In this document: piece after piece, positions 28,928 to 45,948 of the stretch | Numbering within the stretch: the stretch's first letter is position 1 | Layout: each line of letters starts with the position of its first letter | From: Clostridia bacterium | GTDB taxonomy: Bacteria > Bacillota > Clostridia > Christensenellales > Pumilibacteraceae | Direction of reading: 5' to 3' | DNA length: 64,000 bases | Assembly (NCBI GenBank): GCA_017623435.1 | Contig: JAGAPD010000008.1 | Coordinates: forward strand, 1 to 64,000 | Program-made: the position numbers and the translations under genes | The notes under the pieces: generated by a model | The model's input: only the letters and a program-made list of their open reading frames with translations | What the model was told of the DNA's origin: nothing | Databases searched by the model: none

Positions 28928-29440
28928 ATGAAAAAGGCGGAAGTTGACAAACTTCTTTGTCGGGTTGCCGACGGGGACAATAACGCTTTTGAGCAGTTAT
29001 ATATAAGTACGGGACGCTGAGTTTACGCGTTCGTCTTGTCGTACCTGCATTCTCGTCAGGACGCCGAGGACGTCGTGCAAAACGTCTATCTTAAAATAAA
29101 GACGAGCGTGAGCGGATATCGGCGTGGAAGTAACGCAAGCGCGTGGATTTTGCAAATCGCTAAAAATACCGCACTCGACTTCTTGCGAAAAAGAAAGCAA
29201 GAAATTTACCTCGACGAGATTGAGCATATTGGAAAGATAGACGAGGTAGATAGCGGCGAGGTTATGACAGCCATTGAAAAATATTTAAGCGAAGAGGAGC
29301 AAAGAATCGTGATTTTGCACGTTTTGTGGGGTTACAAGCACCGCGAAATAGGTCAGATTTTATCGCTCCCGACGGGAACGGTTACTTCAAAATACAAGCG
29401 TTCAATTGAGAAACTGCAAAAAGTCTTAAAGGAGGTATGA
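28928..29440 (+). pseudogene. ECF sigma factor gene interrupted by an in-frame TGA
   Basis: From ATG 28928 (CGGAGGG upstream) the frame encodes the start of an ECF sigma factor, KKAEVDKLLCRVADGDNNAFEQLYISTGR, meets TGA at 29018-29020, and continues in the same frame with VYAFVLSYLHSRQDAEDVVQNVYLKI (region 2), the -10 recognition segment, and region 4 (EEEQRIVILHVLWGYKHREIGQILSLPTGTVTSKYKRSIEKL) to TGA 29440. A CGA to TGA change would restore an Arg at a position that is normally Arg/Lys-rich. No ribosome site allows a restart. Broken gene, sequencing error or readthrough are all possible; everything else is intact. Confidence 0.8.
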
Positions 29441-29444
29441 GCGA

Positions 29445-30773
29445 ATGAAAAACTTAAAAAACCGTTGGAACGAAGAGCTTGGTAACGCTCTGCCTGTACT
29501 GAATGAAAAGGTTAAAAACGCCCCTATCGTTACGGGCGAAAAGAAAAAGGAAAGGGGCTTTACGGCGTGGATAAAGCAAGCGAAAAACGTGGCGCTAACT
29601 GCGTGTGCGCTCGTAGCCGTTTTGTGCTGTTGCATAATTATTCCGCTATTAAATCAGTCCACCCAGCCACAAGGTCAAGCGTACGCTTTTTCGCTTGAAA
29701 TCAATCCAAAAGTTATGTTTTCGGTGGACGAATACGGCAAGATTGATAGCGTAGTGGCGCTTAACGAGGACGCGGACGTCGTGCTTTCGGGCGAGGGCGT
29801 TTTGACGAGTATTAAAGGAAAAAGCGCGGACGAGGGCGCAAAAATTTTCGTAGATTACTGTGCGCAACTTGGTTATTTGGATATCACGGCGCAGGGTGCG
29901 GTAAAGCTTACGAGCGTGGGCGAAACGAATATTAAAAGCTCGCTTGAAAGCTACTTTAAGCAAAAGGGTGTGCTTTTTGCGGTGGTGGAAGAGCAAACGA
30001 GCGAGCAGAGCTTTAAGCAGAAGTGGGATCTTGGTGATGCGTCTTTAAGCGACGCAATAGGGCAAATGGATACGTTGTTCGTTCAGCGTGATATTGACGG
30101 AAAGAATGAAGAACAACTCAAAACGCACTTTAAGGATAAGCTAAACGATAACGAAGTAAGTGAATTTTTGTACGATAGTTTAGACAAGGCAATAGACGTC
30201 GTAAGTGAAAAATCAAGCGATACGTTAGCGCTCGTTTTGCAAAATTACTTGATAATGACCAGCCCGTACAATCCCCTATTGATGCTTGATTACTGGACGG
30301 TAAAGAATAGCGACGTTAACTGTTATTACGACGAGTTTAACGACCTTATGAAAGAAATGGAAAGCTTGCTTAGTCGTTACGAGAATAAGTATAACGAAAG
30401 CATAAATTCTTTAGACGAGCTTACGGCTTTATCGCTACGCTATTCGCAAGATAACGTTGATAAGCTTACTGCCATATTTAACGGTTTCAGTATTGACAAT
30501 TTTATTAGAGAGGTTGACGCGCTTAGCGACGTTTTAGAAGGGATAGGAGTTGATTTTTCGTTCGCGACTTCGTTACCTGAAAACGAAGAAGAATATATCC
30601 AAAAAACCAGCGAAAGACTTAACGGACAGTTCCACTCCAAGAAGGATAAAAACAAGCAAAAATACGAAACGGATAGGAACGTGGTATCGCAAAACGATTA
30701 CGACGACTTCATTTCGTCCATAATAAGCGAATACGGATCGCTGGAAAAATATTGGGAAAATTTTCAATCTTAA
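29445..30773 (+). CDS. RsgI-like anti-sigma factor, membrane bound
   Basis: 442 residues. Cytosolic N-terminus (1-46) long enough to hold a sigma factor, one TM helix (about 47-68, VALTACALVAVLCCCIIIPLL), and outside it a module like the middle domain of RsgI: YAFSLEINPKVMFSVDEYGKIDSVVALNEDADVVL (about 82-116), then GYL and a helical region to the end. The gene starts four bases after the sigma gene, the classic sigma/anti-sigma arrangement. In Clostridia RsgI proteins hold SigI until an extracellular signal arrives; here the partner is an ECF-type sigma. The extracellular part has no carbohydrate-binding module that I recognise. Confidence 0.82.
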   Translation: MKNLKNRWNEELGNALPVLNEKVKNAPIVTGEKKKERGFTAWIKQAKNVALTACALVAVLCCCIIIPLLNQSTQPQGQAYAFSLEINPKVMFSVDEYGKIDSVVALNEDADVVLSGEGVLTSIKGKSADEGAKIFVDYCAQLGYLDITAQGAVKLTSVGETNIKSSLESYFKQKGVLFAVVEEQTSEQSFKQKWDLGDASLSDAIGQMDTLFVQRDIDGKNEEQLKTHFKDKLNDNEVSEFLYDSLDKAIDVVSEKSSDTLALVLQNYLIMTSPYNPLLMLDYWTVKNSDVNCYYDEFNDLMKEMESLLSRYENKYNESINSLDELTALSLRYSQDNVDKLTAIFNGFSIDNFIREVDALSDVLEGIGVDFSFATSLPENEEEYIQKTSERLNGQFHSKKDKNKQKYETDRNVVSQNDYDDFISSIISEYGSLEKYWENFQS

Positions 30774-30774
30774 C

Positions 30775-30806
30775 GCAACAAAACGCAAAGCCCAGTCGTT
30801 TAATAA
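30775..30806 (+). promoter_or_regulatory. ECF-type promoter before the RsgI-like lipoprotein
   Basis: GCAAC (30775-30779), 17 bases, CGTTTAATAA (30797-30806): both boxes and the spacing equal those at 28875-28906, while the spacers themselves are unrelated. The box starts two bases after the stop codon of the anti-sigma gene. Confidence 0.8.
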
Positions 30807-30832
30807 GTGCAAGATAAATCGGAGGCAAAAAA

Positions 30833-32323
30833 ATGAAAAAAAGAATTTTAGCATCAATTTGCGCGCTTATTATCGCGCTCACGTGCGCAGTCTTTACAGG
30901 CTGTCAGACACCCGACCAGTCGCGTGCAGTAGTTAACGTGGACGTCAACCCGTCCATTCAGTTCGTCGTTGACGCGCAAAACAAAGTGGTCAGCGTAAAC
31001 GCGCTTAACGAGGACGCTCAAGTGCTCCTCTACGGCGAAGCAAGCTTTGAAGGTAAGGATATCGAGCAGGCAATTGAAACGATTACTTCGCTTGCCGTTG
31101 AGTACGGATACCTTGACGAACAAAACAAGGTCGTTCAGACTTCCGTTTCCTCGGATAACGAGGATTTAAAGAACAAGCTTACGACGAAAGTGAACGCGTC
31201 CGTTACCGCAGGTGCGCAAAAATTAGGATTTAGCGTAACGGTGGACGACGAGGTTGCTTATTCGCTTATGCGTAAATACGAAGATTACAAGCTGGAGCAC
31301 TTAGACGACGAGCAAATTCAAGCGCTCACCGTTGAAAAATTCAGACTTGCGCTTAACCTTTCGCAGTCTGGCAAGGTTAGTCTTGACGTAGCCGTTAAGA
31401 TGGATGAAAAGCAGTTGATTGACAAGATCAGCGAAGTGGATAAAAAGGTTAAAAACTTCGCGACTAAGGCGTACGAGAAAGCAAAGGCTTTGGCGCAAAA
31501 CGCTTACGACGAGGCAGTAGGAGTGCTCGTTGACAACGTGTACAACGAATATTACCTTACGCACCTTCTCGCTCACCCCACGACCTTCTATTACGGCTCG
31601 GCTTATCAGTCTTACAAGCTCGCGTCGCGCGGTTTCGGGGCAGTAGCGAAAGTTATGACGATTGCTGAAAATATCTACGTTTGTCCGCTTGATAGCGCGG
31701 TAGTGGAAAACGCTGCGCAGTCGTTCGGAATTGCTGACCAGCTTGACCAGCTCAAAGACAACGACGGCAATTATACGCTCGAAAGCATTTGTGCTTACGC
31801 CGACAAGGTTATTAAGAACAGCGAAGAGGGCGTTGAGCTTGAACAGCTCAAAACGCAAATCGACGCTCAGATCAATACGCTCGTTAACGAGGCAAAGGAC
31901 GAGGTGGCTGAACTTTTGGCACAGTACGAGCCTCAGATCCGCGAGATCATCAGCAAAGTAAACGACGTAGTAAAATCGGTTGAAAACGTTATGCCCGCAA
32001 CGCTTAAAGCTTCTTTTGAAGAAAGCATGAGCACCTTTAACGAGGTAGTGACCGAATTTGAAGAGGCGATTGAGAGCGGTACGTTTAACAGCGCAAAGGT
32101 TTACGAATTTCAGGCAAAAATGGTAGATAAGGCGAACAAGATGCTCGCGCTTATCAAAGCAGATATCGGTGATGAGGCGTTTAACGAATGCCAAAACGTA
32201 ATTTCCAGTCGTCAGCAAAGCCTTGACCAGTTGAAAACTACGATGGAAAACGCAATCGCTCAGGCTGAAGAGCAAGCGAAAAACTTCCTTTCCTCGCTTA
32301 AAGAGAGCAGAAAGGAAAATTAA
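30833..32323 (+). CDS. Lipoprotein with RsgI-like domain and helical C-terminus
   Basis: 496 residues. Signal peptide with lipobox VFTGC (Cys at about 23), so it is anchored outside the membrane. Residues 30-90 repeat the RsgI middle-domain pattern of the preceding protein: VVNVDVNPSIQFVVDAQNKV, then VNALNEDAQVLL and SLAVEYGYL. The remainder is Ala/Lys/Glu-rich and mostly helical, with heptad-like stretches (about 190-230 and 330-490). No DNA-binding or cytosolic part exists, so it cannot bind sigma itself. It may compete with or feed signals to the membrane anti-sigma factor. Own ECF-type promoter, GGAGG site, terminator at 32350-32397. Confidence 0.82.
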   Translation: MKKRILASICALIIALTCAVFTGCQTPDQSRAVVNVDVNPSIQFVVDAQNKVVSVNALNEDAQVLLYGEASFEGKDIEQAIETITSLAVEYGYLDEQNKVVQTSVSSDNEDLKNKLTTKVNASVTAGAQKLGFSVTVDDEVAYSLMRKYEDYKLEHLDDEQIQALTVEKFRLALNLSQSGKVSLDVAVKMDEKQLIDKISEVDKKVKNFATKAYEKAKALAQNAYDEAVGVLVDNVYNEYYLTHLLAHPTTFYYGSAYQSYKLASRGFGAVAKVMTIAENIYVCPLDSAVVENAAQSFGIADQLDQLKDNDGNYTLESICAYADKVIKNSEEGVELEQLKTQIDAQINTLVNEAKDEVAELLAQYEPQIREIISKVNDVVKSVENVMPATLKASFEESMSTFNEVVTEFEEAIESGTFNSAKVYEFQAKMVDKANKMLALIKADIGDEAFNECQNVISSRQQSLDQLKTTMENAIAQAEEQAKNFLSSLKESRKEN

Positions 32324-34873: not shown

Positions 34874-34902
34874 TTGACAAAAACTGATGGCGGTGTTATA
34901 AT
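34874..34902 (+). promoter_or_regulatory. Promoter of the type VII-like gene cluster
   Basis: TTGACA (34874-34879), 17-base spacer, TATAAT (34897-34902). No further promoter or terminator is obvious until 42384, so it probably drives all six genes to 42335. Confidence 0.85.
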
Positions 34903-34965
34903 TGTAAAGTATATTATATATTTATATTAAACAATTTACCAAAAAATCGTTATTTGGAGGCAAAA

Positions 34966-36870
34966 ATGGACGATAAGAAAAAGAGCGGATTAAACGCTTT
35001 TGCAGGCAGAAAGGTAGGCGGTAGCGACAAGTACCGCGAGCATCACCTTGAAACGCTCCGTCACGAGCGCGCAGTTGAAACGACGGATAGAATCAATCAG
35101 TTCTACGCGCAAAACAAGACGCTTGAGTGGGCAAGACGTGCGTTTGATTTTTGTGATCGCGAGCAAGAAAACGGCGTGGATATAGCGGACATTTGCGAAG
35201 GACTTAAAAAGCTTCCGCTTATCAGAAGTGAGGCGCAGAGCATTATTGACGACGACGCGCGCCAAAAGCAGAAGAAAATTGACGATGAAAACGCGAAAAT
35301 CCGCGCGCGAGAAGTTGCGGACGCGCAAAGAAAACGTCAGCTTGAGCTTTTGCAGAAAGAGCAGGATCTTAAAAATCAGGCGGACGAGGCGGCGTACGTT
35401 GCTAACGTTGAAAAGCTTATTTCTTCGCTTTCGGGCGACGACAGAACGCGCGCGTGGGTAGAGTCGGTAAAAAACGCGTACGCTATCGCGAGTGGACTTC
35501 CCCAAGCGTCGTACAATAAGATTAAAAACCGTCACCTTCTCGAAGATTTCGTAAAAGAGACGGCGCTGGTAGAAAAGGCGCTTGATCTTGACGCGGAAAT
35601 TATCGACCTTCAAAATTCCAGAACGAAGAGTAAGGCGTGGGCGGATAAGGTATTTAAGCTGGAAAAACAGCTTGACGGCGCTCACGAAAAATATCTTACT
35701 AAGAAAGAAAACTATTACGAAGTTTTGTCGCTTGCTGGCAAGGTTTTCTACGCGCCTCAGCTTGCTACTATCGAGGGCTTTTTGAAAAAGATTGAGCGTG
35801 GCGATAGCCGTTTGGCGCTTGAGGATTACCCCAAGACCACGACGACGGTAGAAAAACTGCGCGAGGCAATTTATATCGACGAGTATATCGACAACTTCGA
35901 AATTCGCTGGACGGACGCGCAGGACGTTATGAGCACGCTCAAAGCAAAGGACAAGAAGGCTGCTGATGCTGAAAGGGCGCGTTTGATTGAAGAAGAAAAG
36001 GCGCGTAAGAAGGAGCAAGAGCGTTTAGCGGAAATCGATCGTCAAAACGAAATTAAAAGAAAGCAAGAGATTGCAAGAAAGAAAGAGCTTGAAAGGAAAA
36101 AAGCGCTTGCAAGAAGAAGAAATTCCTACATAATTATGGCGGTTAGTGCGCTCGTAGTTTTGGCAGGATCTATTATCGGCGGTATATTTACGGAAGGAAT
36201 CGTTCGTTCCATTTTGTTCGGCGGTGGCTGTTCGGTAGGCGCGCTTGTAATCTACGCTATCATTGCTCGACTTTTGGGTAGCAAGGGCGCGGACGAGGCG
36301 AGAGGCGTCGTTTATATCGTGTTCAGCTTGCTCCACATTGCAGCAGGAATCGCGTGTATTTTCCTGGATGCAAGTGGAATAATGACGCTTTGCGTATCTG
36401 TGGGCGTGTTCGCAGGAATGATTCTTAATCTTGTGATGTCCATTGATTGTAGAGACGACTTTGAAAACGATATGATGTTCGTCGTGCTGTTTGTTAATAG
36501 CATACTTTTGTCTGCGGCGCTTTATATGGTGATTCCCTCTATTTGGGGCGGAGTAATCGGTGCGGTTATTATCTTGACGATGGCTATCGTTTGCGGTTGC
36601 ATCGTTAACGCTAACAACCCCTACGACACGGGTATCGTAGTTTTGATGGGCGTGTTCGTGGCGACCATTTTGGGTGCGCTCGTTGCAATGTTCTTCAGTT
36701 GGGGATTGTTTATTATGGGCGTTGCGGCAGTAATCGGCTGCGTTATTCCCCTTTGCGTTATGGCGAGCAACGACGTTGACGGATCGATGGTTATCGCTAT
36801 GGGCGCAATTATTATCGGAATTATCGTAGCGTTTATTGCAGTAGCCGTGCATTGTGGCTGGTTCGCATAA
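34966..36870 (+). CDS. Coiled-coil protein with nine C-terminal TM helices (type VII-like cluster)
   Basis: 634 residues from ATG 34966 (GGAGG at 34956-34960; a TTG four codons earlier is not used because the ribosome site would be inside it). Residues 1-385 are soluble, charged and largely helical, ending in a highly basic/acidic stretch (about 345-390, many KKEQER/KRKQE-like heptads). Residues 390-634 hold nine hydrophobic helices with short loops and almost no extracytoplasmic domain. I recognise no family. As first gene before the EssC-like ATPase it is the best candidate for the membrane channel or platform that the ATPase, which lacks TM helices, must dock to. Confidence 0.75.
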   Translation: MDDKKKSGLNAFAGRKVGGSDKYREHHLETLRHERAVETTDRINQFYAQNKTLEWARRAFDFCDREQENGVDIADICEGLKKLPLIRSEAQSIIDDDARQKQKKIDDENAKIRAREVADAQRKRQLELLQKEQDLKNQADEAAYVANVEKLISSLSGDDRTRAWVESVKNAYAIASGLPQASYNKIKNRHLLEDFVKETALVEKALDLDAEIIDLQNSRTKSKAWADKVFKLEKQLDGAHEKYLTKKENYYEVLSLAGKVFYAPQLATIEGFLKKIERGDSRLALEDYPKTTTTVEKLREAIYIDEYIDNFEIRWTDAQDVMSTLKAKDKKAADAERARLIEEEKARKKEQERLAEIDRQNEIKRKQEIARKKELERKKALARRRNSYIIMAVSALVVLAGSIIGGIFTEGIVRSILFGGGCSVGALVIYAIIARLLGSKGADEARGVVYIVFSLLHIAAGIACIFLDASGIMTLCVSVGVFAGMILNLVMSIDCRDDFENDMMFVVLFVNSILLSAALYMVIPSIWGGVIGAVIILTMAIVCGCIVNANNPYDTGIVVLMGVFVATILGALVAMFFSWGLFIMGVAAVIGCVIPLCVMASNDVDGSMVIAMGAIIIGIIVAFIAVAVHCGWFA

Positions 36871-36929
36871 TATTTTTGCATCTCAAAAACTTTACACAAA
36901 ACCTTATTAAACGTTTAGGAAACAGATAA

Positions 36930-39900
36930 ATGATATCTACTTTTGACAAATTAAAAAAGCTACGCGTTACGTACGAAACGGAGCTTAAACAAAGAAAAGA
37001 AGAGTACTCACAAGCGGTTGCGGAGGCGAAGGACGACTATAACCGTTCGCTTTCTATTGACTTCGTGGACGAGGAAAAGTTGCGTTTTGAAGTGTCGCTT
37101 GACTCGCTTGAAGAGCTTTATCAGGACATCGTCGACATTTACGCGCGCACGAAAGGTTTGACCTTTTCGGTTACGCGCCATATGGCTGGCGTTAGCGCAC
37201 GCCCCGTGCCTCACGGCGGAGTAAACGAGTATTTTGACCGTCTCGTAGAGGACTGTAACGGTGCGCTTGACGCTATTGAGAGAAGTCGCTCGCCCGAGCA
37301 GGATATCGTGCCTATCAAGGCGTTTTGTCAGGGACTTGCCGACCTTCGCTACGTGGTTAAAAACGCGCGTAGACTGGTGGAGGAAACGGGCGATACCCAG
37401 CGCAAAAAACAGGAGCTTTTGCAACGCAAAAAGGAGCGAATTTCTGAAGCTGAGCGCGAGTACGCCGAGCAAACGAGGGTAGAAAACTTCGATTGCTACG
37501 GTGAACTGGAAAAGTTCAGCCAAAAGATTATTGAAGAGTATAAAATCACCGGCGACAGTATGCTTTCAAACAAGCCAATTAGGTGCAGAAACGATCATAA
37601 ATATTTGATGGGATTTTATACTGCTGACGTGCCTACGGCGGATTTGAATTTTGCCGAGCGCGTACTTCATATTCCCTCCGCGGCGTTTGCGACTAACCCT
37701 ATCTATTTTAACCTCAACGCCGACCACACGACCTTGCTTATCAACGCGCCCAAGATGTTCTACGAAAAGTCGCATATTTTATTCCACGACGAGCGTAGAA
37801 AACTGGAATTTCACAAGCTTCTGACTAATATTTACCTGTCGCTTATCAGCAATATGCCTGCAAAACAGTTACTCTTTACGGGCGTAGAGCCGGACGGGGC
37901 AGGCGACTCCGTTTTGGGCGGAATCGAGATGTCCATTAACGAGAAGCTCAAAACGGGAGTTTTCAAAAAGGTGAGCAAAAAGGTGGATATGGCTACCGAG
38001 TCTATCCCCGAGCTTTTTGAGGAAATCAGATCGCTTTGCGACGAGCGTTCAGCAGTCTATACCAACCGCGGAATAAGCGATATTTTCGCGTACAACGAGA
38101 AGAATACTTCCAGTAGCAATTATTTTTTGGCGTTTTTTGCAAACCGCTACCCGTACGGATTTGACAGTACGCGTTACGACGGTCGTCAAGAACTCGTTAA
38201 TATGGCTACGCGCAACGGCAGTAAGGGTGTAATTTCCATTATTTGTCAGGAAACCGACGCTAAATTTACGCCTAACGCTCAGCCTCTTACGGCGGAAGAG
38301 CTTAACGCTGACGTAATTGATATTTCCGCTGACGGAACGATTACTTACAACGGAAAACGCGCAACGCTTGATATCCGCTCGCTTGACTTTGACTACGATA
38401 ACTATATGAAAGAATTGTCCAGTTACTTGGTCAAAGCGTCCAGCATTTGGCTTTACGATATTTTGGACAAGGAGGACGCTAAGCCTGCCATAGTTAAAAC
38501 GGCGGACAAATCGGGCGACAACGTGTTCTACAAGCGTATCACCGTACCTATGGGCGAGAGCGCAGGCAAGCAGTTTAATTTCTCTATGAAGGCGTGTTCG
38601 ACCGAAAGCTTTGCGCTTTTGGTGGGAGCGGCTGAATCGGGTAAATCTTCTTTCCTTCATACCTTTATTCTTAGCGCGGCGGCTAAATATTCGCCCGACG
38701 AGCTTCAATTTGGTTTAGTTGACTTTAAGGCGAAAAAGGATTCTCCCGAGTTTTCGCAATATATTAAGATCCCGGGCAAAGATAATTTATACGTTCCGCA
38801 CGTTAAATACCTTATGGTTAACGGAAAGGCGGAGTGCGCGATTGACCTATTTAATATGCTCGTCGATATCAAAAACGAGCGAAGTGCACTCTTTACGCAG
38901 GCAGGAGTTACCGAGCTTTCCGCGTATAACGACAGCGAGCTGGTAAAGAGCGGTAAGCTTCCGCGCCTACCCATTTATATGTTCATTATCGACGAATATA
39001 ACGTTATGCTTGAAGGTGACGGAAAGCGCGATAGAAACGTTAACCGTATGATAGTTACCGCGCTTACGACCACGATTAAGGCGGTGCGCGCTTACGGTAT
39101 CGGCATTATGCTTTCCGGTCAGTCGGTAGCCAGCGGACTTACGGGCGAGGAAGGTGCGCTCGCGCAAATGAAAACGAGAATTTCGCTGTACACCAACAGT
39201 ATCGAGGGCTACGGCACGCTTATGGGTGCGAGCAACGTAGCGGGAAAAGACGCGAAAAACGAAGTAGGATATTTGCGTGATAAGGGCTATTCAATATTCA
39301 CCTCCGACGCCGGCAGAACGCGTACGCAGGTGCGCCACGCTTACGCAGGACAGACGGGCTGTAAGCGTCAGCTTGAGCTTGCAAAGCGTATCCGTCAGCA
39401 ATGGGGCGAGGGCGATCAGCTTATCGCGGGCGACGTAACGAAGTACCCCGTATCCCACGATTCGAAAAATAAGTTTACCGTGGGAAGAGTGGAAAAGAAG
39501 AAATTCCAAATTCCGCTGGGCATTTCCTCCGCGTCTATGAAAGCGCAAGGACTTGAATATTCGTCCGAGCAAGACGGAATGGGATACTTCGCGTTTGCCG
39601 CTACAGATCAAATCGTGGATATTGAAAGAAACGCTATGTTTTCTTTCCTTTCTACCACGCGCCGTCAAAACCTTTCTATAAACCAGATTCAGTATCTGAG
39701 TACTTTTGAGTCGTATAACGGCTATTTTGACGAGTACTTTAACGCTTATCCGCAACTGAATAATTATATCAACCTCGTTTTGGGCGAGGAGCTTACCGCT
39801 AAAAAGTTCATTGAGATTTACGACGCGTACGAATCGCGCCGTGCAAAAGCGGCGAAGGAGAGATGCGAATTCGAGCCGTTATTCGTTATAATGCACGATA

Positions 39901-40484
39901 TCGAGTGGCTGACGGACGATAGAGTTTCTTGGCTGGACGCCGTCAACGGCAATCAAGAATCAGAGCAGGAAGAGGGCGAAGTGGTTAAGTACGAGGGCGC
40001 TAAGGTTTCGGTAGAGGACCTTCAGAAAAACGAACGACTTGCCGCGGCTCTTCCGCCTGAGCTTATGGCTGCGATTGCTAAAAAGGCGCAAAGCGGTGGT
40101 CAATTCGTGCGTAAAATGGACGCGCCTCAAACTAAGAGTAAAAGAACGCGACTGAGCTTAGAGGACGTAAGAACTATGTTCCGCACGCTTTACACCCGTG
40201 GTAACAGATACAAGATTTTCTTGCTCGTGACTAGCGCCACGATGGACACTATCAACAAGGCTATCGTTGACAAGCTTGACGCGTCGGGTAAGACCATCGC
40301 AAAGGAAAGCTACGCGGTGTACGGCTCGCAAAAAGAGCGCGAGGGAAATGGAAAACGCGACAAGGAAAGCAATCACGAGTGTATCTACGTTTGCCCCGAG
40401 GAAAGCAACACCAGACTTTTTGACTACTCACTTGCAAACAACGGTAAGTGGTGGGACGAGTTTATAAAAATTTTGAAGGACTAA
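36930..40484 (+). CDS. EssC-like FtsK/SpoIIIE ATPase
   Basis: 1184 residues. N-terminal coiled coil (about 1-200). A first, apparently degenerate FtsK/SpoIIIE module follows (about 240-460), betrayed by DERSAVYTNRGISDIFAYN at 371-389. The second module is intact: Walker A GAAESGKS at 566-573, Walker B IIDE with Asp688/Glu689, and NERSALFTQAGVTELSAYN at 649-667, parallel to the first module. A third module (about 860-1184) has lost its P-loop and keeps only a Walker-B-like FVIMHDIEW (Asp990). Three tandem modules are the EssC/EccC plan of type VII secretion. TM and FHA domains are absent, so this is not a canonical EssC or a DNA-translocating FtsK. Confidence 0.85.
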   Translation: MISTFDKLKKLRVTYETELKQRKEEYSQAVAEAKDDYNRSLSIDFVDEEKLRFEVSLDSLEELYQDIVDIYARTKGLTFSVTRHMAGVSARPVPHGGVNEYFDRLVEDCNGALDAIERSRSPEQDIVPIKAFCQGLADLRYVVKNARRLVEETGDTQRKKQELLQRKKERISEAEREYAEQTRVENFDCYGELEKFSQKIIEEYKITGDSMLSNKPIRCRNDHKYLMGFYTADVPTADLNFAERVLHIPSAAFATNPIYFNLNADHTTLLINAPKMFYEKSHILFHDERRKLEFHKLLTNIYLSLISNMPAKQLLFTGVEPDGAGDSVLGGIEMSINEKLKTGVFKKVSKKVDMATESIPELFEEIRSLCDERSAVYTNRGISDIFAYNEKNTSSSNYFLAFFANRYPYGFDSTRYDGRQELVNMATRNGSKGVISIICQETDAKFTPNAQPLTAEELNADVIDISADGTITYNGKRATLDIRSLDFDYDNYMKELSSYLVKASSIWLYDILDKEDAKPAIVKTADKSGDNVFYKRITVPMGESAGKQFNFSMKACSTESFALLVGAAESGKSSFLHTFILSAAAKYSPDELQFGLVDFKAKKDSPEFSQYIKIPGKDNLYVPHVKYLMVNGKAECAIDLFNMLVDIKNERSALFTQAGVTELSAYNDSELVKSGKLPRLPIYMFIIDEYNVMLEGDGKRDRNVNRMIVTALTTTIKAVRAYGIGIMLSGQSVASGLTGEEGALAQMKTRISLYTNSIEGYGTLMGASNVAGKDAKNEVGYLRDKGYSIFTSDAGRTRTQVRHAYAGQTGCKRQLELAKRIRQQWGEGDQLIAGDVTKYPVSHDSKNKFTVGRVEKKKFQIPLGISSASMKAQGLEYSSEQDGMGYFAFAATDQIVDIERNAMFSFLSTTRRQNLSINQIQYLSTFESYNGYFDEYFNAYPQLNNYINLVLGEELTAKKFIEIYDAYESRRAKAAKERCEFEPLFVIMHDIEWLTDDRVSWLDAVNGNQESEQEEGEVVKYEGAKVSVEDLQKNERLAAALPPELMAAIAKKAQSGGQFVRKMDAPQTKSKRTRLSLEDVRTMFRTLYTRGNRYKIFLLVTSATMDTINKAIVDKLDASGKTIAKESYAVYGSQKEREGNGKRDKESNHECIYVCPEESNTRLFDYSLANNGKWWDEFIKILKD

Positions 40485-40490
40485 ACGAGT

Positions 40491-40772
40491 ATGATTATTT
40501 ATGAAAGAGTAAAAAGCTTGAGTGACGAGATGATCGTTGAACTTGCGGAAATGAAAGCTTGCGCTACGAAGTTTAAGAGTAAAACTTCTGATTTCAGCGA
40601 CACTTTGGGTGATAAGATTTCAAACAGCGCGTTCTCGATTAGTGAGGATATCACGCGAATTATCGGCGAAACGGAAAGCATTATCCGTCAAAAGACCACT
40701 AACGTGGGCGATTTCGCGCAGGAGCTTAAAAGAGTAGAAGATATGATTAAATCAAAGGTGGATAATATATGA
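40491..40772 (+). CDS. Small helical protein, WXG100-size, FSDTLGD motif
   Basis: 93 residues, predicted all-helical, with no Trp and one Cys. The segment FSDTLGDKIS (35-44) recurs as FSDTLGDSIS near the C-terminus of the 336-residue protein of the same cluster (41325-42335). Starts six bases after the ATPase gene with GAAGGA upstream, and its stop overlaps the next start (ATGA). Size, helicity and place after an EssC-like ATPase suggest a secreted substrate or partner of the WXG100 kind, though the WXG turn itself is absent. Confidence 0.7.
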   Translation: MIIYERVKSLSDEMIVELAEMKACATKFKSKTSDFSDTLGDKISNSAFSISEDITRIIGETESIIRQKTTNVGDFAQELKRVEDMIKSKVDNI

Positions 40773-41068
40773 GCGTTAACGACCAGATTGCAGCGGCAAC
40801 CGAGGAGTTGCTTGGCATCGTAAGAGATTATTACAAAGACCTCAACGGTTTTATTGAGGATATGCTCCGCGAGATTGAATCGCTCAACGACAAAATGAAT
40901 CAGATTAACCAAAACTGGAACGACGCTAACTTCGACGATTTCAGAAATAGCGTTAACGTCAAAATCAGGGAGCTTGAAAGCCAGATTAATCGCGCAAAGG
41001 ACCTTTTGTCTATGGTAAAAGAGACCGAAAATTCCTTTGCGTCTGCGCTTGCTATTTTAAGGGGTTAG
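40769..41068 (+). CDS. WXG100-like small helical protein
   Basis: 99 residues. Two amphipathic helices flank a turn with Trp50 (QNWNDANFDDFRNSV), i.e. W-N-D in place of W-x-G, with Phe55 and Phe58 behind it. Length, central Trp and hairpin layout match the WXG100/EsxA family of type VII secretion substrates. No signal peptide, as in that family. Four-base overlap with the gene before. The identification rests on architecture, not on overall sequence similarity. Confidence 0.72.
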   Translation: MSVNDQIAAATEELLGIVRDYYKDLNGFIEDMLREIESLNDKMNQINQNWNDANFDDFRNSVNVKIRELESQINRAKDLLSMVKETENSFASALAILRG

Positions 41069-41074
41069 TCCGTT

Positions 41075-41332
41075 ATGGGAAAAATTTACGACGACGGCAA
41101 CTTCTTTTCGGGCGTAAGCTATTCGGTTGACGAGATTAGTTTTACCTATACTTCGTGGAACGATAGCGTAGGTAGTGCGCTTACGAAGGTGGCGAAAACC
41201 GTTCCCTCTTCCTTTAACTACGCGCAGGGTGAGCTGTGGGAAAAGATTGCGCCCCTTCTTAAAGTGGAGGAAAACGAAATCAAATACTGTGGCTACGAGG
41301 GCGAAATTGGAGGGCTGAAAGTAGATGAGTAG
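41075..41332 (+). CDS. Small protein of the type VII-like cluster
   Basis: 85 residues, no recognised family. It shares a W-N-D turn (TSWNDSVG, Trp28) with the preceding WXG100-like protein; the rest is mixed, with KVEENEIKYCGYEGEI near the C-terminus. AAGGGG precedes the ATG and the last eight bases overlap the next gene, so it is firmly part of the operon. It may be an adaptor or chaperone for the helical substrates. Confidence 0.65.
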   Translation: MGKIYDDGNFFSGVSYSVDEISFTYTSWNDSVGSALTKVAKTVPSSFNYAQGELWEKIAPLLKVEENEIKYCGYEGEIGGLKVDE

Positions 41333-42335
41333 CGTACACGTATCCCCCGAAAACATAGGAAGATTTGCCGACCACGCGCGCGATTGCGCCAGCGAGGTCA
41401 ATAACGAGCTTGCTAAAGGGCGTAGTGCCGTTATTGACGTAGAAAACAAGGTAAACGTTGCTATCTCTAACACGAACGCGCTTATTGAGGAAATGGTACG
41501 CGATTTTGAACACGCGCAAAAGGTTTACGAGGAAAACTGTGAACTTTTAGAAAAAAAGGAGGCGGAATATAACGCGGTAGAAAAGCAGTTATCCGCCGCG
41601 CGTGATAGTTTAGAGGCAGCGCAGGAAGAGCAAACGCGTGCGAAAAATTCCTCGTCAGGCTCGACTCCCGAGGAAAAGAAAGCGCACGACAGCGCAGTTT
41701 CCGCTGCTAATAGCGCCGTTTCTTCGGCAAGTAGTGCAGTTTCCTCGCTTAAAAGCGAGCTTACCAAAATAGGCAAGGTTATCGAGCGTATCAACCGCGC
41801 AAACAGTAGGCTTAGAGATATAATGTATATCGTCAAAAATCAAATGCGCGAGGCGAGAGAGTATATTGCAGGGCTTCAGAAACAGCTTCGCGCCGTTATG
41901 GGCAAAAAGGAAAGGTTTGAATCGGAAGGTAAACGCGCGGTAGACAGCTTTAACACGCTTGCAATCGTTGCGACTAACGCGAAAAGCTATATTGATTCGG
42001 CTTGTAAGTCCCTTGCCGACGCGGCCGATAAGGATTATTCCTCGTACGATAACAGGGTAAGTATGAATTCCATTCACGCGCTTATCGACGCTGCTGAAAT
42101 TATGGAAAATATGAAGGAAAGCGTGCAAAATTTCACGCACGACCAAAAGGAGCGAGTGCAGGAATTTAGCGACACTTTGGGCGATAGTATTTCTTACCAT
42201 ATGGCGCAGGTGGGAGCGGATATAGGTGAAAAGATGGTGCACGCTACCGCTACCTTTGACGAAAAAGCGCAAAAATTACGCCAGGCGTACAAGCAGTTAG
42301 TCGCCTACACTAATATTCATTATACGAGATATTGA
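41325..42335 (+). CDS. Long helical protein, putative type VII-like substrate
   Basis: 336 residues, almost entirely helical. The N-terminus (VHVSPENIGRFADHARDCASEV) resembles the beginning of WXG100/LXG-type helical domains. Residues 65-150 form a coiled coil interrupted by a Ser/Ala-rich segment with repeated AVSSASSAVSS (about 110-145). The C-terminal part carries FSDTLGDSIS, shared with the 93-residue protein. There is no recognisable toxin domain. Last gene of the cluster, before the hairpin at 42384-42442. Confidence 0.68.
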   Translation: MSSVHVSPENIGRFADHARDCASEVNNELAKGRSAVIDVENKVNVAISNTNALIEEMVRDFEHAQKVYEENCELLEKKEAEYNAVEKQLSAARDSLEAAQEEQTRAKNSSSGSTPEEKKAHDSAVSAANSAVSSASSAVSSLKSELTKIGKVIERINRANSRLRDIMYIVKNQMREAREYIAGLQKQLRAVMGKKERFESEGKRAVDSFNTLAIVATNAKSYIDSACKSLADAADKDYSSYDNRVSMNSIHALIDAAEIMENMKESVQNFTHDQKERVQEFSDTLGDSISYHMAQVGADIGEKMVHATATFDEKAQKLRQAYKQLVAYTNIHYTRY

Positions 42336-42727: not shown

Positions 42728-42756
42728 TTGAAAAAAGTCGAAAAGTGTTGTATAAT
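42728..42756 (+). promoter_or_regulatory. Promoter of the double-XRE/InlB-repeat gene
   Basis: TTGAAA (42728-42733), 17 bases, TATAAT (42751-42756). The -10 box overlaps a possible upstream TTG start, so translation starts at ATG 42775. Confidence 0.75.
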
Positions 42757-42774: not shown

Positions 42775-45700
42775 ATGCAATTTTACGAAAGATTAAAACA
42801 ACTCCGAAAAAATGCGAATTTAACGCAAAACGAGTTTTCAGAAAGGGTGGGCGTGCATTTTCAGACCGTTTCAAAATGGGAGCGTGGTGCGTCTGAGCCG
42901 GATATTTCTCTACTTGGGATAATATCGGGCGTTTTGTCCGTATCGGTAGAAACGCTTTTGGGAGTAGATCAGGGCGAGCAAGTTTTTACGGGCGATTTTA
43001 ACGCCGAGAAAATGGGCATATCCATTGCCGAGCAACGCAAAAAGCAAGGACTAAATCAAAACGAGCTTGCCGAAAAATTAAGCGTTTCAGCGGACATAAT
43101 ATCCAAGTGGGAGAGAGGCGTTACCAGTCCTGACCGAGCGTCGCTTACTTCTCTTTCCTCGCTTTTATCCGTCCCCTTATCCAAGCTTTACTTTGGCGTT
43201 TTGGACGACGCGGAGGTGATAAACTACGCCACGGAAAAGAAACGCAAAAATCCGTTTTGGCAGATTTTGGCGGTAACGTGTGCCTGCGTTTTGGTCGTTT
43301 GTTTGTCCGTTTTTATTCCGATCATAACTAATTTAACTCAAAATAATAGCGTTGAAACGGTCGAGCCTGTCGTTTACACGGTGGACTTCTGGGTGAACGG
43401 TGGACAAATCGAGGGCGAGTACGAAAGCGAGTTTACCGGTGTTGGCGACGAGATTTCGTTGCCTACGCCACGAAAAGAGGAGGACGTTTTCGTTGGGTGG
43501 TACTTAAATAGCGACTACTCAGGCGACAGCGTAAGTAGCGTTACCTGTGACGGAAAAAGCGTAAGCGTTTATGCGAAGTGGCAGTCGGGTGAGTGCGGAA
43601 TCAGATACGAGCTGGGCGGCGGTACTTGTGACGGCAATCCTACGGTCACTAACGGTAGCGACGTAATTACGCTTAACGACGCGAAAAGAAACAGCCATAT
43701 TTTCCTTGGTTGGTACACCGAGAAAAACGGTGGCGAAAAGTACGAATACGTGGGTGGTGATCATTCTAAAAATATCACGCTTTACGCGCGCTGGCAAAAG
43801 GTCGAACAGACTTTTTCCGTAACCTACACTTATAACGGTGGTAACCTTGAAAAAAGCAATCCTTCGTCGCTTTCTTACGGCGAAGTTTATATCCTCAATC
43901 CCGCGCAAAAAGTCGGTCACAAGTTTTTGGGCTGGTACGACGACGCTAACGGCGAAGGCAAGGCTTACGAATGGATTGAGGGAAATGCCGACTTGCACCT
44001 TTACGCGCTTTTCGAGCCTATTTGCTACGTCATCTCTTACGAGTACGACGGCGTTTATAAAAACGAAAGCAACCCCTCGTTCGTGACCTACGGCGAGGAA
44101 GTGGAGCTGAGTGACGTGATTTTTGAAGGTCATAACTTCGTTGGTTGGTTTACGAGCGAAGAGGGAGGCCAAAAAATTGAACGCATTACACCCGAAAACG
44201 TAACCTCGTTAACTACGCTTTACGCGCGTTACGAGCCAAAAACTTACACCGTCACGCTGTTTGCAAACGGCGGAATAGTGGACGAAAAGGAGGTGGAAAC
44301 GTGCTATCTAACTTATACTTACGGCACGGTTTTGCCCCTTCCCGTTGCACTCAAAGACGAGTACACTTTTGAATGCTGGGTGGACGAGGACGGACGCGAA
44401 TTTAGCGAAATGACGGTATACGCATACGGCGATTTGGTTTTGACGGCACGTTATTATCGCACGGACGGTACGAAAATTATTTACGAAAAAGAGGGCGGAG
44501 AGCCGACTGCGGATCTCCCTGAAAAGATTATTCACGGCACGCGTCAATCGCTTTGCTCGCTGACTAAAGAGGGATTTATTTTCCTTGGCTGGAACGATAA
44601 AAAAGACGGCTCGGGCGAGTTTTATACGCTTACGCCCGTAAGTGATGCGGAGCAGTTTACGCTTTACGCCATTTGGCAAGAAATTCTGACCAACGGCAGT
44701 AGCGAGCATTTTGACTTCGTTAAGGGCGCAACGACCGTGACGGTGACCAAATACAAGGGGCAAACGGGCGAGCATATCGACGTCGTTATTCCCTCGTATA
44801 TAGAGGAATTGCCCGTCTCAAAAATAGGTGACGGACAAAGCGCGTATTCCATTTTTGGCGAAGAAAACGTCAAACTCAATTCGCTCACCCTTCCGCTTAC
44901 CTTGCGCACGATAGAGTGCAACGCGCTATCCAATATTGAACTTACGCAAACGCTGATTATCCCTGCAACTACGATTGAGATAAAAGCGAACGCGTTTGCT
45001 AACTCCTTTTTGGCGGTAGAGTTTGCGGAAAATAGCGAGCTTAAAGCTTTAACGAAGAACGCTTTTTATAGCGCGAAGATTAAAAACGTTTTCGTTATTC
45101 CCGATAGCGTTGACGTGATAGAGGGCTTTTCACTTTCAACGTCTTGTATGGGCGTAAAACTTCCAAACAAGCCTATACGTATAGCGTCGTTTGCCTTTTA
45201 TGATGAAGATAATGGTGCGCATACCGTTTACTTTCCCGATAATATTGACTTCGATTTGATTGAAGAAAATGCCTTTTATAAAAATGGCAGTAATTCAGTT
45301 AATTATTGTGTGTATTCAAAGAAAGTTATTTCCGAAGAGTTGAAGAGAAAATGGGGTGCGTACGAAACGCACATCGTAGCAAGCGGCGTGACGCTCGTGG
45401 ACGGCGATTCCGTAACTACGCTTGACGGCAACGAATTTATTTTACCTACGCCTCAAAAGGAAGGCTACCGTTTCCTTGGCTGGCAAAAGCCTAACGGGGC
45501 AATAGCAGGTCAGTATTACGTCGCAAAAGAGAATAATCTTACCCTGACTGCATTGTACGAAAGTAATAACGACTTCTTGGGAAGTGATAAAACTTCGCCT
45601 ATCACGTTAAACGTAGGGGATAGCGTTGAAATTGATTTAGTGCTTGCGCAAAACGTGCATTTCTTTATTCCGGATCAAGGAATGGCGTATCAGGTAAAAG

Positions 45701-45948
45701 TTATTCCGCTAAACGATTATACTAACGTTGACGGTTCGTGTAGCGGTTGTTTTAGTTATCCAGTTGACACCGCTCTTAGTCTAATAGATTTTGCAACGCA
45801 AGTTACGAATTGGTATACTGATTTCACACCAACGCTATTTTGTATAGAGGAAGGTGACCAAAATTTTGCAATAAGACGCGTGAGAAACACGTGTGGAATT
45901 GCTTATTCGCTCCGCTATAAGGTTTCCGTAACCCCCTATACGCAGTAA
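42775..45948 (+). CDS. Double-XRE transmembrane protein with InlB-type repeats and leucine-rich segment
   Basis: 1057 residues from ATG 42775 (AAAGGA). Two tandem XRE helix-turn-helix domains (1-63 and about 79-140; FQTVSKWERGASEPD and ADIISKWERGVTSPD), a basic stretch, one TM helix (162-187), then a large outside region. That region has about six consecutive Listeria-Bacteroides (InlB B-type) repeats, each with a Y.....GG start and an F.GWY..........YA.W end, a BspA-like leucine-rich segment (about 680-800), a seventh InlB repeat and a C-terminal domain. A DNA-binding head on an adhesin-like ectodomain is unusual and suggests direct signalling from surface contact to transcription. Terminator at 45990-46021. 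Confidence 0.88.
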   Translation: MQFYERLKQLRKNANLTQNEFSERVGVHFQTVSKWERGASEPDISLLGIISGVLSVSVETLLGVDQGEQVFTGDFNAEKMGISIAEQRKKQGLNQNELAEKLSVSADIISKWERGVTSPDRASLTSLSSLLSVPLSKLYFGVLDDAEVINYATEKKRKNPFWQILAVTCACVLVVCLSVFIPIITNLTQNNSVETVEPVVYTVDFWVNGGQIEGEYESEFTGVGDEISLPTPRKEEDVFVGWYLNSDYSGDSVSSVTCDGKSVSVYAKWQSGECGIRYELGGGTCDGNPTVTNGSDVITLNDAKRNSHIFLGWYTEKNGGEKYEYVGGDHSKNITLYARWQKVEQTFSVTYTYNGGNLEKSNPSSLSYGEVYILNPAQKVGHKFLGWYDDANGEGKAYEWIEGNADLHLYALFEPICYVISYEYDGVYKNESNPSFVTYGEEVELSDVIFEGHNFVGWFTSEEGGQKIERITPENVTSLTTLYARYEPKTYTVTLFANGGIVDEKEVETCYLTYTYGTVLPLPVALKDEYTFECWVDEDGREFSEMTVYAYGDLVLTARYYRTDGTKIIYEKEGGEPTADLPEKIIHGTRQSLCSLTKEGFIFLGWNDKKDGSGEFYTLTPVSDAEQFTLYAIWQEILTNGSSEHFDFVKGATTVTVTKYKGQTGEHIDVVIPSYIEELPVSKIGDGQSAYSIFGEENVKLNSLTLPLTLRTIECNALSNIELTQTLIIPATTIEIKANAFANSFLAVEFAENSELKALTKNAFYSAKIKNVFVIPDSVDVIEGFSLSTSCMGVKLPNKPIRIASFAFYDEDNGAHTVYFPDNIDFDLIEENAFYKNGSNSVNYCVYSKKVISEELKRKWGAYETHIVASGVTLVDGDSVTTLDGNEFILPTPQKEGYRFLGWQKPNGAIAGQYYVAKENNLTLTALYESNNDFLGSDKTSPITLNVGDSVEIDLVLAQNVHFFIPDQGMAYQVKVIPLNDYTNVDGSCSGCFSYPVDTALSLIDFATQVTNWYTDFTPTLFCIEEGDQNFAIRRVRNTCGIAYSLRYKVSVTPYTQ

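What the first reader, a model, noticed from the sequence alone, without database searches (positions are those of the whole stretch)
34874..42335. Reduced or divergent type VII-like secretion cluster
One promoter, six tightly packed genes: a coiled-coil protein with nine TM helices, an EssC-plan ATPase with three tandem FtsK/SpoIIIE-like modules of which only the middle one has Walker A (566-573) and Walker B (688-689), then 93-, 99- and 85-residue proteins and a 336-residue helical protein. The 99-residue protein has WXG100 size and a central Trp50 with W-N-D instead of W-x-G. Known T7SSb loci add EsaA, EssA, EssB, EsaB and LXG toxins; none is recognisable here. The ATPase has no TM or FHA domains, so the channel would have to be the novel nine-TM protein. 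That would be a different machine architecture.
Basis: partly seen in the sequence, partly recalled or inferred. Interest (0 to 1): 0.85.

Follow-up and report, generated by a model that had tools for sequence, protein, structure and literature searches.

The report
Compact type VII-like export gene cluster
A gut-type Clostridia genome carries a six-gene cluster that looks like a stripped-down cousin of the type VII secretion machine, in which the motor protein is soluble and a separate multi-pass membrane protein sits beside it; sister clusters carry antibacterial-type toxins, so it is probably a small, mobile toxin exporter whose channel is still unknown.

Summary
In detail: a perfect promoter (34874-34902) precedes six tightly packed genes: a nine-TM protein, a TM-less EssC-plan ATPase with one active (central) module, 93/99/85-aa proteins and a 336-aa helical protein. 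The ATPase is not a chromosomal FtsK (the genome has its own). In a tree of active modules it falls with 23 soluble EssC-like ATPases (96/95), apart from EssC/EccC and FtsK. That group includes the Type III-A CoCoNuT/TerY-P-associated 'FtsK-like ATPase + WXG100' cassette, already described with the same architecture (PMC11090510). The 99-aa protein is WXG100-like: it is the only WXG100-profile hit in its genome, it models as a hairpin with Trp50 in the turn, and its group matches canonical WXG100 (E 1e-8). EssB and over-cutoff EssC are absent. New here: polytopic membrane proteins inside 11 of 16 stand-alone clusters (linkage recovered with one as bait) and toxin/immunity-like genes (nuclease, ADP-ribosyltransferase, swapped C-termini) at sister clusters. 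Best reading: a stand-alone, horizontally spread T7-like exporter with a soluble motor. Export, and a channel role for the nine-TM protein, remain unproven. New variant of a known, uncharacterised kind.

The parts
34874..34902 (+). promoter TTGACA-17-TATAAT
   Evidence: 12 of 12 consensus matches
34966..36870 (+). 634-aa membrane protein: ~385-aa charged helical (probably cytoplasmic) part, then nine TM segments; possible membrane dock or pore
   Evidence: no Pfam family; no homologue in 200 genomes of the order
36930..40484 (+). 1184-aa soluble EssC-like ATPase: helical N-terminus, module 1 (degenerate), module 2 (active), module 3 (degenerate)
38625..38648 (+). Walker A GAAESGKS (residues 566-573) of the central module
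38991..38996 (+). Walker B acidic pair D688-E689
   Evidence: invariant in 19 homologues
40491..40772 (+). 93-aa helical protein without Trp; candidate partner of the 99-aa protein; related to the C-terminus of the 336-aa protein
40769..41068 (+). 99-aa WXG100-like hairpin, W50-N-D in the turn
41075..41332 (+). 85-aa protein with SWNDSVG; conserved small-protein group of these clusters, not recognisably WXG100
41325..42335 (+). 336-aa helical protein in the position of the toxin carriers of sister clusters; no toxin domain found

Best explanation
The cluster is a stand-alone type VII-like export device built on a soluble motor. The ATPase (helical N-terminus, three FtsK/EssC-type modules, only the central one able to hydrolyse ATP) would form a hexameric ring that recognises a complex of the small helical proteins: the 99-aa WXG100-like protein with its 93-aa partner, the 85-aa protein and the 336-aa carrier. 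Because the ATPase has no membrane anchor, it would be held at the membrane by the co-transcribed nine-TM protein, whose ~385-aa non-membrane part is available for docking and whose TM part could form the pore. At sister clusters the carrier position holds proteins with toxin C-termini, so the usual job is export of antibacterial toxins; the window copy carries only the carrier. Shown: gene order, single active module, family membership, WXG100-like partner, toxin carriers at sister clusters, recurrent membrane protein. Inferred: hexamer, docking, pore, and that anything is exported.
For: Three-module EssC-plan ATPase in one clade with other soluble EssC-like ATPases. The 99-aa protein is the only WXG100-profile match of the whole genome, and in four of the six sister genomes the best match also lies in the cluster; profile match to canonical WXG100; hairpin model. 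Sister clusters carry toxin domains on helical carriers: ADP-ribosyltransferase, Endonuclea_NS_2, Gln_amidase, and on a Helicobacter plasmid a WHH nuclease next to a SUKH immunity-type protein; L136 holds two carriers identical for ~211 aa and then unrelated. A membrane protein with three or more TM lies in 11 of 16 stand-alone clusters, and the L037 membrane protein used as bait finds an ATPase-linked relative.
Against: No export has been shown for any member. The window copy has no toxin or immunity gene. The membrane proteins of the clusters are mostly unrelated to each other and the window's has no detectable homologue. JAB-, Hsp70- and TerY-P-linked relatives mostly lack an obvious polytopic partner. 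Loss of TM and FHA in the ATPase is equally compatible with an intracellular role.
Confidence: 0.6

Rival explanations
1. It is an intracellular conflict or anti-phage module. The soluble ATPase and WXG-like proteins act inside the cell, and the membrane protein is a membrane-perturbing effector or a sensor, not a channel.
For: The closest described relatives sit in CoCoNuT/TerY-P islands predicted to be defence systems (PMC11090510); L089 and L145 have such neighbours; sporadic distribution and likely transfer; a decayed copy.
Against: WXG100-like proteins are export substrates wherever tested (established knowledge); carriers with toxin C-termini and immunity-type neighbours at sister clusters fit export of polymorphic toxins.
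Confidence: 0.22
2. It exports proteins, but the nine-TM protein is not the channel: it is an anchor, an accessory or an unrelated passenger, and the path across the membrane is something else.
For: The membrane proteins differ from cluster to cluster; several related loci have none in view (L139, L141).
Against: A polytopic protein recurs at 11 of 16 loci, overlaps the ATPase gene in L037 and L151, and is ATPase-linked when searched independently.
Confidence: 0.12
3. The ATPase is a second chromosomal DNA translocase (FtsK/SpoIIIE) and the small proteins are unrelated to type VII secretion.
For: The active module alone scores as well against FtsK as against EssC/EccC D1 (E 3e-23 against 2e-21 and 1e-23).
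Against: No TM segments and three modules instead of one; it lies outside the FtsK clade; the genome has a normal FtsK beside recA on contig C23; the only WXG100-like protein of the genome is two genes downstream.
Confidence: 0.03
4. It is the decayed remnant of a canonical T7SSb locus.
For: EssC-like plan, two modules degenerate, no EssA/EssB/EsaA/EsaB recognised.
Against: Degeneracy of modules 1 and 3 and loss of TM are shared by the whole clade, which is separate from EssC; all six reading frames are intact; no EssB in 74 family genomes.
Confidence: 0.03

Closest known systems
EssC-like ATPase / WXG100 cassette of Type III-A CoCoNuTs and TerY-P islands (PMC11090510, citing Anantharaman et al. 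2012; H. pylori HP0062/HP0066, 'minimal set of type VII', PMC4978471)
   Same: N-terminal helical region in place of FHA and TM; three ATPase modules with only the central one active; WXG100-type proteins with and without the motif; helical toxin-type carrier; one clade in the tree.
   Different: No vWA, kinase, phosphatase or McrBC genes; a nine-TM protein is the first gene of the operon; W-x-D instead of W-x-G; extra 85-aa small-protein group; no toxin domain in the window copy.
T7SSb (EssC/EsxA) and T7SSc-T7SSj (PMC11217815)
   Same: EssC-related multi-module ATPase plus WXG100-like protein plus helical carrier/partner genes; toxin types at sister clusters (EsaD-type nuclease domain, ADP-ribosyltransferase).
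   Different: ATPase is not membrane-bound, no FHA, three modules instead of four NTPase domains; no EssB, no ubiquitin-like TsxB recognised; all ten described subtypes have a membrane-bound ATPase.
T7SSa (ESX, EccC/EccD)
   Same: EccC D1 is among the best matches of the active module; a separate polytopic membrane protein also exists there (EccD, established knowledge).
   Different: No EccB/EccD/EccE/MycP recognised; ATPase soluble; no homology seen between the nine-TM protein and any Pfam family.
Chromosomal FtsK/SpoIIIE
   Same: Fold and motifs of the active module.
   Different: Three modules, no TM, separate clade, own FtsK elsewhere in the genome.

Membership tests
soluble EssC-like ATPase / WXG100 cassette | ATPase without TM or FHA, with N-terminal helical/coiled-coil region | tested here: met
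   no TM, no FHA in Pfam; coiled coil judged from sequence only, no predictor run
soluble EssC-like ATPase / WXG100 cassette | three ATPase modules, only the central one with Walker motifs | tested here: met
soluble EssC-like ATPase / WXG100 cassette | groups with the CoCoNuT-linked ATPase and apart from EssC/EccC and FtsK | tested here: met
   96/95 for the 24-row group; the window row is on a long branch
soluble EssC-like ATPase / WXG100 cassette | two WXG100-type proteins, one with and one without the motif | tested here: met
   99-aa with W-N-D; 93-aa without Trp, match to WXG100 borderline
Type III-A CoCoNuT / TerY-P island | vWA, kinase, PP2C, McrBC/CoCoNuT genes alongside | tested here: not met
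   neighbours are sigma/anti-sigma, VTC, DUF4956, methyltransferase, HTH-repeat protein
canonical T7SS (a-j) | membrane-bound EccC/EssC ATPase | tested here: not met
   no TM segments; EssC/EccC model scores far below cut-off
canonical T7SS (a-j) | WXG100 protein TsxA in the locus | tested here: met
   99-aa protein: profile P 95.5 %, E 1e-8 to canonical WXG100; below the Pfam cut-off on its own
T7SSb | EssB (YukC) in the genome | tested here: not met
   0 of 74 family genomes, control rings in B. subtilis
T7SSb | ubiquitin-like EsaB/TsxB in the locus | tested here: not met
   no such Pfam match among the six proteins; genome-wide search not done; T7SSd also lacks it
T7SS substrates (LXG) | LXG domain protein | tested here: not met
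   no PF04740 match in the genome; the 336-aa carrier is only analogous
any secretion system | ATPase-dependent appearance of substrates outside the cell | not testable with these tools
   needs an experiment
chromosomal FtsK/SpoIIIE | N-terminal TM domain, single motor module, FtsK clade | tested here: not met
   own FtsK at G000:C23

The most novel reading that the evidence does not exclude
A type VII-like exporter in which motor and channel are separate proteins: a soluble EssC-type ring docks on a polytopic membrane protein that forms the pore, and this pore component has been replaced several times by unrelated membrane proteins while the motor and WXG100-like substrates stayed.
Probability: 0.25. 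Interest if true: 0.85.

Novelty: new variant of a known kind. Interest (0 to 1): 0.58.

Why it matters
How a TM-less EssC homologue could export proteins is an open question; the CoCoNuT paper says 'a different mechanism appears likely'. The stand-alone clusters in this bacterial order offer a concrete candidate, a linked polytopic membrane protein, and give toxin-type cargo for the family, so the question can be tested with a six-gene unit. If true, type VII-like export would include machines with separable motor and channel, with relatives also in bacteria that have two membranes (Helicobacter, Caballeronia).

Tried and rejected
First genome-contig scan with the ATPase alone found no relative. 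Most ATPase hits in relatives are ordinary FtsK near recA and were rejected as cluster homologues. Fold search with the 99-aa hairpin does not discriminate: many coiled coils score as well; CFP10-ESAT6, HP0062 and EsxA are in the list but do not stand out. Pfam hits of the 99-aa and 336-aa proteins to eukaryotic coiled coils were rejected as composition noise. The ATPase structure job had not finished at the last poll, so there is no model of the three modules; HMM-HMM comparison stands in. hhalign of the nine-TM protein against 14 other membrane proteins gave nothing. The empty-site test in the sister species failed: the flanking VTC gene was not found there. The first tree, with D3 modules, had poor support for the group (23/0) because of long branches and was repeated without them. 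Whether the active module is the counterpart of D1 or D2 of EssC is unsettled: on its own it is most like D1, but aligned along the whole protein it stands in D2 position.
Full report
WHAT IS THERE. The window is contig 4 of a 1.84-Mb draft genome whose relatives are Bacillota/Clostridia MAGs. Between a methyltransferase gene on the other strand and an HTH/repeat protein lie six co-directional genes behind a 12-of-12 promoter at 34874. They encode a 634-aa protein with nine TM segments, a 1184-aa ATPase, and proteins of 93, 99, 85 and 336 residues. Gaps are 59, 6, -4, 6 and -8 bp. Additions: the 85-aa protein also holds W-N-D, and the 93-aa protein is related to residues 243-300 of the 336-aa protein.

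THE ATPASE. Family models see only the active module (FtsK_SpoIIIE 2e-16, EccCa 9e-16, EssC 2e-14, the last two far below their cut-offs). HMM-HMM comparison inside the family shows two further modules of the same origin whose P-loops have decayed. Aligned along its length it follows EssC through D1, D2 and the start of D3 (E 9e-18); chromosomal FtsK matches one module only. It has no TM and no FHA. The family members examined have one Walker A each and no convincing TM domain; three rows show a single hydrophobic stretch inside the protein.

RELATIVES. Searches of 74 genomes of the family, 396 of the order and 391 of the class, plus plasmids and genome contigs, found about 20 loci with the same ATPase and small helical neighbours (maps). 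Seven of 74 family genomes have one (some at contig ends), so it is sporadic. The ATPase genes of L080 and L133 are 94.8 % identical over 1.7 kb of DNA although the genomes are in different families: recent transfer, or mis-binning of one contig. In a maximum-likelihood tree of active modules the 24 soluble ATPases form one side of a branch (96/95) against EssC/EccC D1+D2 (90/82) and FtsK (100/100). The set includes ATPases linked to vWA+PP2C+kinase (L145), CARF/vWA/AAA genes (L089), Hsp70 (L142, L144, L090) and JAB+ThiF genes (L138, L140, L143). The window's nearest rows are L081, L137 and L037 (93/97), though it sits on a long branch.

SMALL PROTEINS. Scanned with the WXG100 profile, the whole genome gives one hit at E <= 0.1, the 99-aa protein; in G020, G073, G091 and G312 the top hit also lies in the cluster, while in G033 it does not and in G352 there is none. 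Among 15 W-x-D proteins of the clusters, WXG100 is the only Pfam family that recurs (8 of 15; the next best 2). Profile-profile comparison with Listeria and Nocardia WXG100 proteins gives P 95.5 %, E 1.3e-8, Trp on Trp. The model is a hairpin, pLDDT 92.8, with W50-N-D in the turn. The 85-aa group is not recognisably WXG100 (P 1.4 %); the Trp-less partners are borderline (P 38 %).

CARRIERS AND TOXINS. At sister clusters the long helical protein carries toxin domains: ADP-ribosyltransferase (L135, 5e-24), non-specific endonuclease (L141, 9e-33), papain-fold glutamine deamidase (L145, 3e-8), and on a Helicobacter plasmid a WHH nuclease with a SUKH neighbour (L090). L136 holds two carriers identical over ~211 residues and then unrelated, one with HEFGH, each followed by small genes. 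L135 and L143 share one C-terminal domain on different N-termini. This is the pattern of exported polymorphic toxins. The window's 336-aa protein has no toxin domain.

THE MEMBRANE PROTEIN. Eleven of 16 stand-alone clusters hold a protein with three or more TM segments beside the other genes (window, L033, L037, L131, L080, L081, L082, L083, L134, L135, L137); of the other five (L132, L133, L136, L139, L141) two run into a contig end and one has lost its partners. Polytopic proteins are common, so this count alone is not strong. They fall into several unrelated groups: L037/L082; L033/L131, joined to L080/L081 by LRR repeats; L134/L135; L083; L137; and the window alone. In L037 the gene overlaps the ATPase gene. 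As an independent test, the L037 membrane protein used as bait in 200 genomes found one relative, and there it overlaps a truncated ATPase gene of this family. Linkage is therefore real for that group and, by position, likely for the window. A channel role is inference.

CANONICAL PARTS. EssB is absent from all 74 family genomes, an EssC over cut-off from all 31 tested, LXG from the genome. The genome's other ATPase matches are its FtsK and a short frame.

KNOWN OR NEW. PMC11090510 describes this ATPase plan with two WXG100 proteins in Type III-A CoCoNuT islands and cites a 2012 paper (not held here) for stand-alone occurrence as a secretion system; PMC4978471 calls WxG+FtsK a minimal type VII set in H. 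pylori. PMC11217815 lists T7SSa-j, all with membrane-bound ATPase. The window is therefore a new variant of a known but uncharacterised kind. What I did not find described is the linked polytopic membrane protein and the toxin carriers in this order of Clostridia; the literature search covered open-licence papers only.

Noticed in passing
window 42778-45948 (+): 1056-aa protein with two HTH_3 domains, one TM, six Listeria-Bacteroides repeats and an LRR_5 region: a membrane-anchored regulator with outside repeats, directly behind the cluster with its own promoter at 42728. LRR_5-type repeats also occur in membrane proteins of sister clusters.
   Followed up: partly
window 29036-32323 (+): Sigma factor gene followed by two proteins with RsgI-like anti-sigma central domains.
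   Followed up: no
L138, L140, L143: ATPases of this family next to JAB-type and ThiF-type genes plus WXG100-like proteins: a ubiquitin-like-pathway-linked branch.
   Followed up: partly
L090 1811-10506: Helicobacter plasmid with the same ATPase family, an Hsp70-like protein, a WXG100-like 89-aa protein, a WHH nuclease with helical N-terminus and a SUKH neighbour: a type VII-like toxin cassette in a two-membrane bacterium.
   Followed up: partly
L151 5967-9516: Decayed copy: L037-type membrane protein overlapping an ATPase gene that ends before the active module.
   Followed up: yes
L080 1-1691 and L133 8470-10160: 94.8 % DNA identity over the ATPase gene between genomes of two families, ending at the end of the ATPase; the L133 copy lacks the small genes.
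   Followed up: partly
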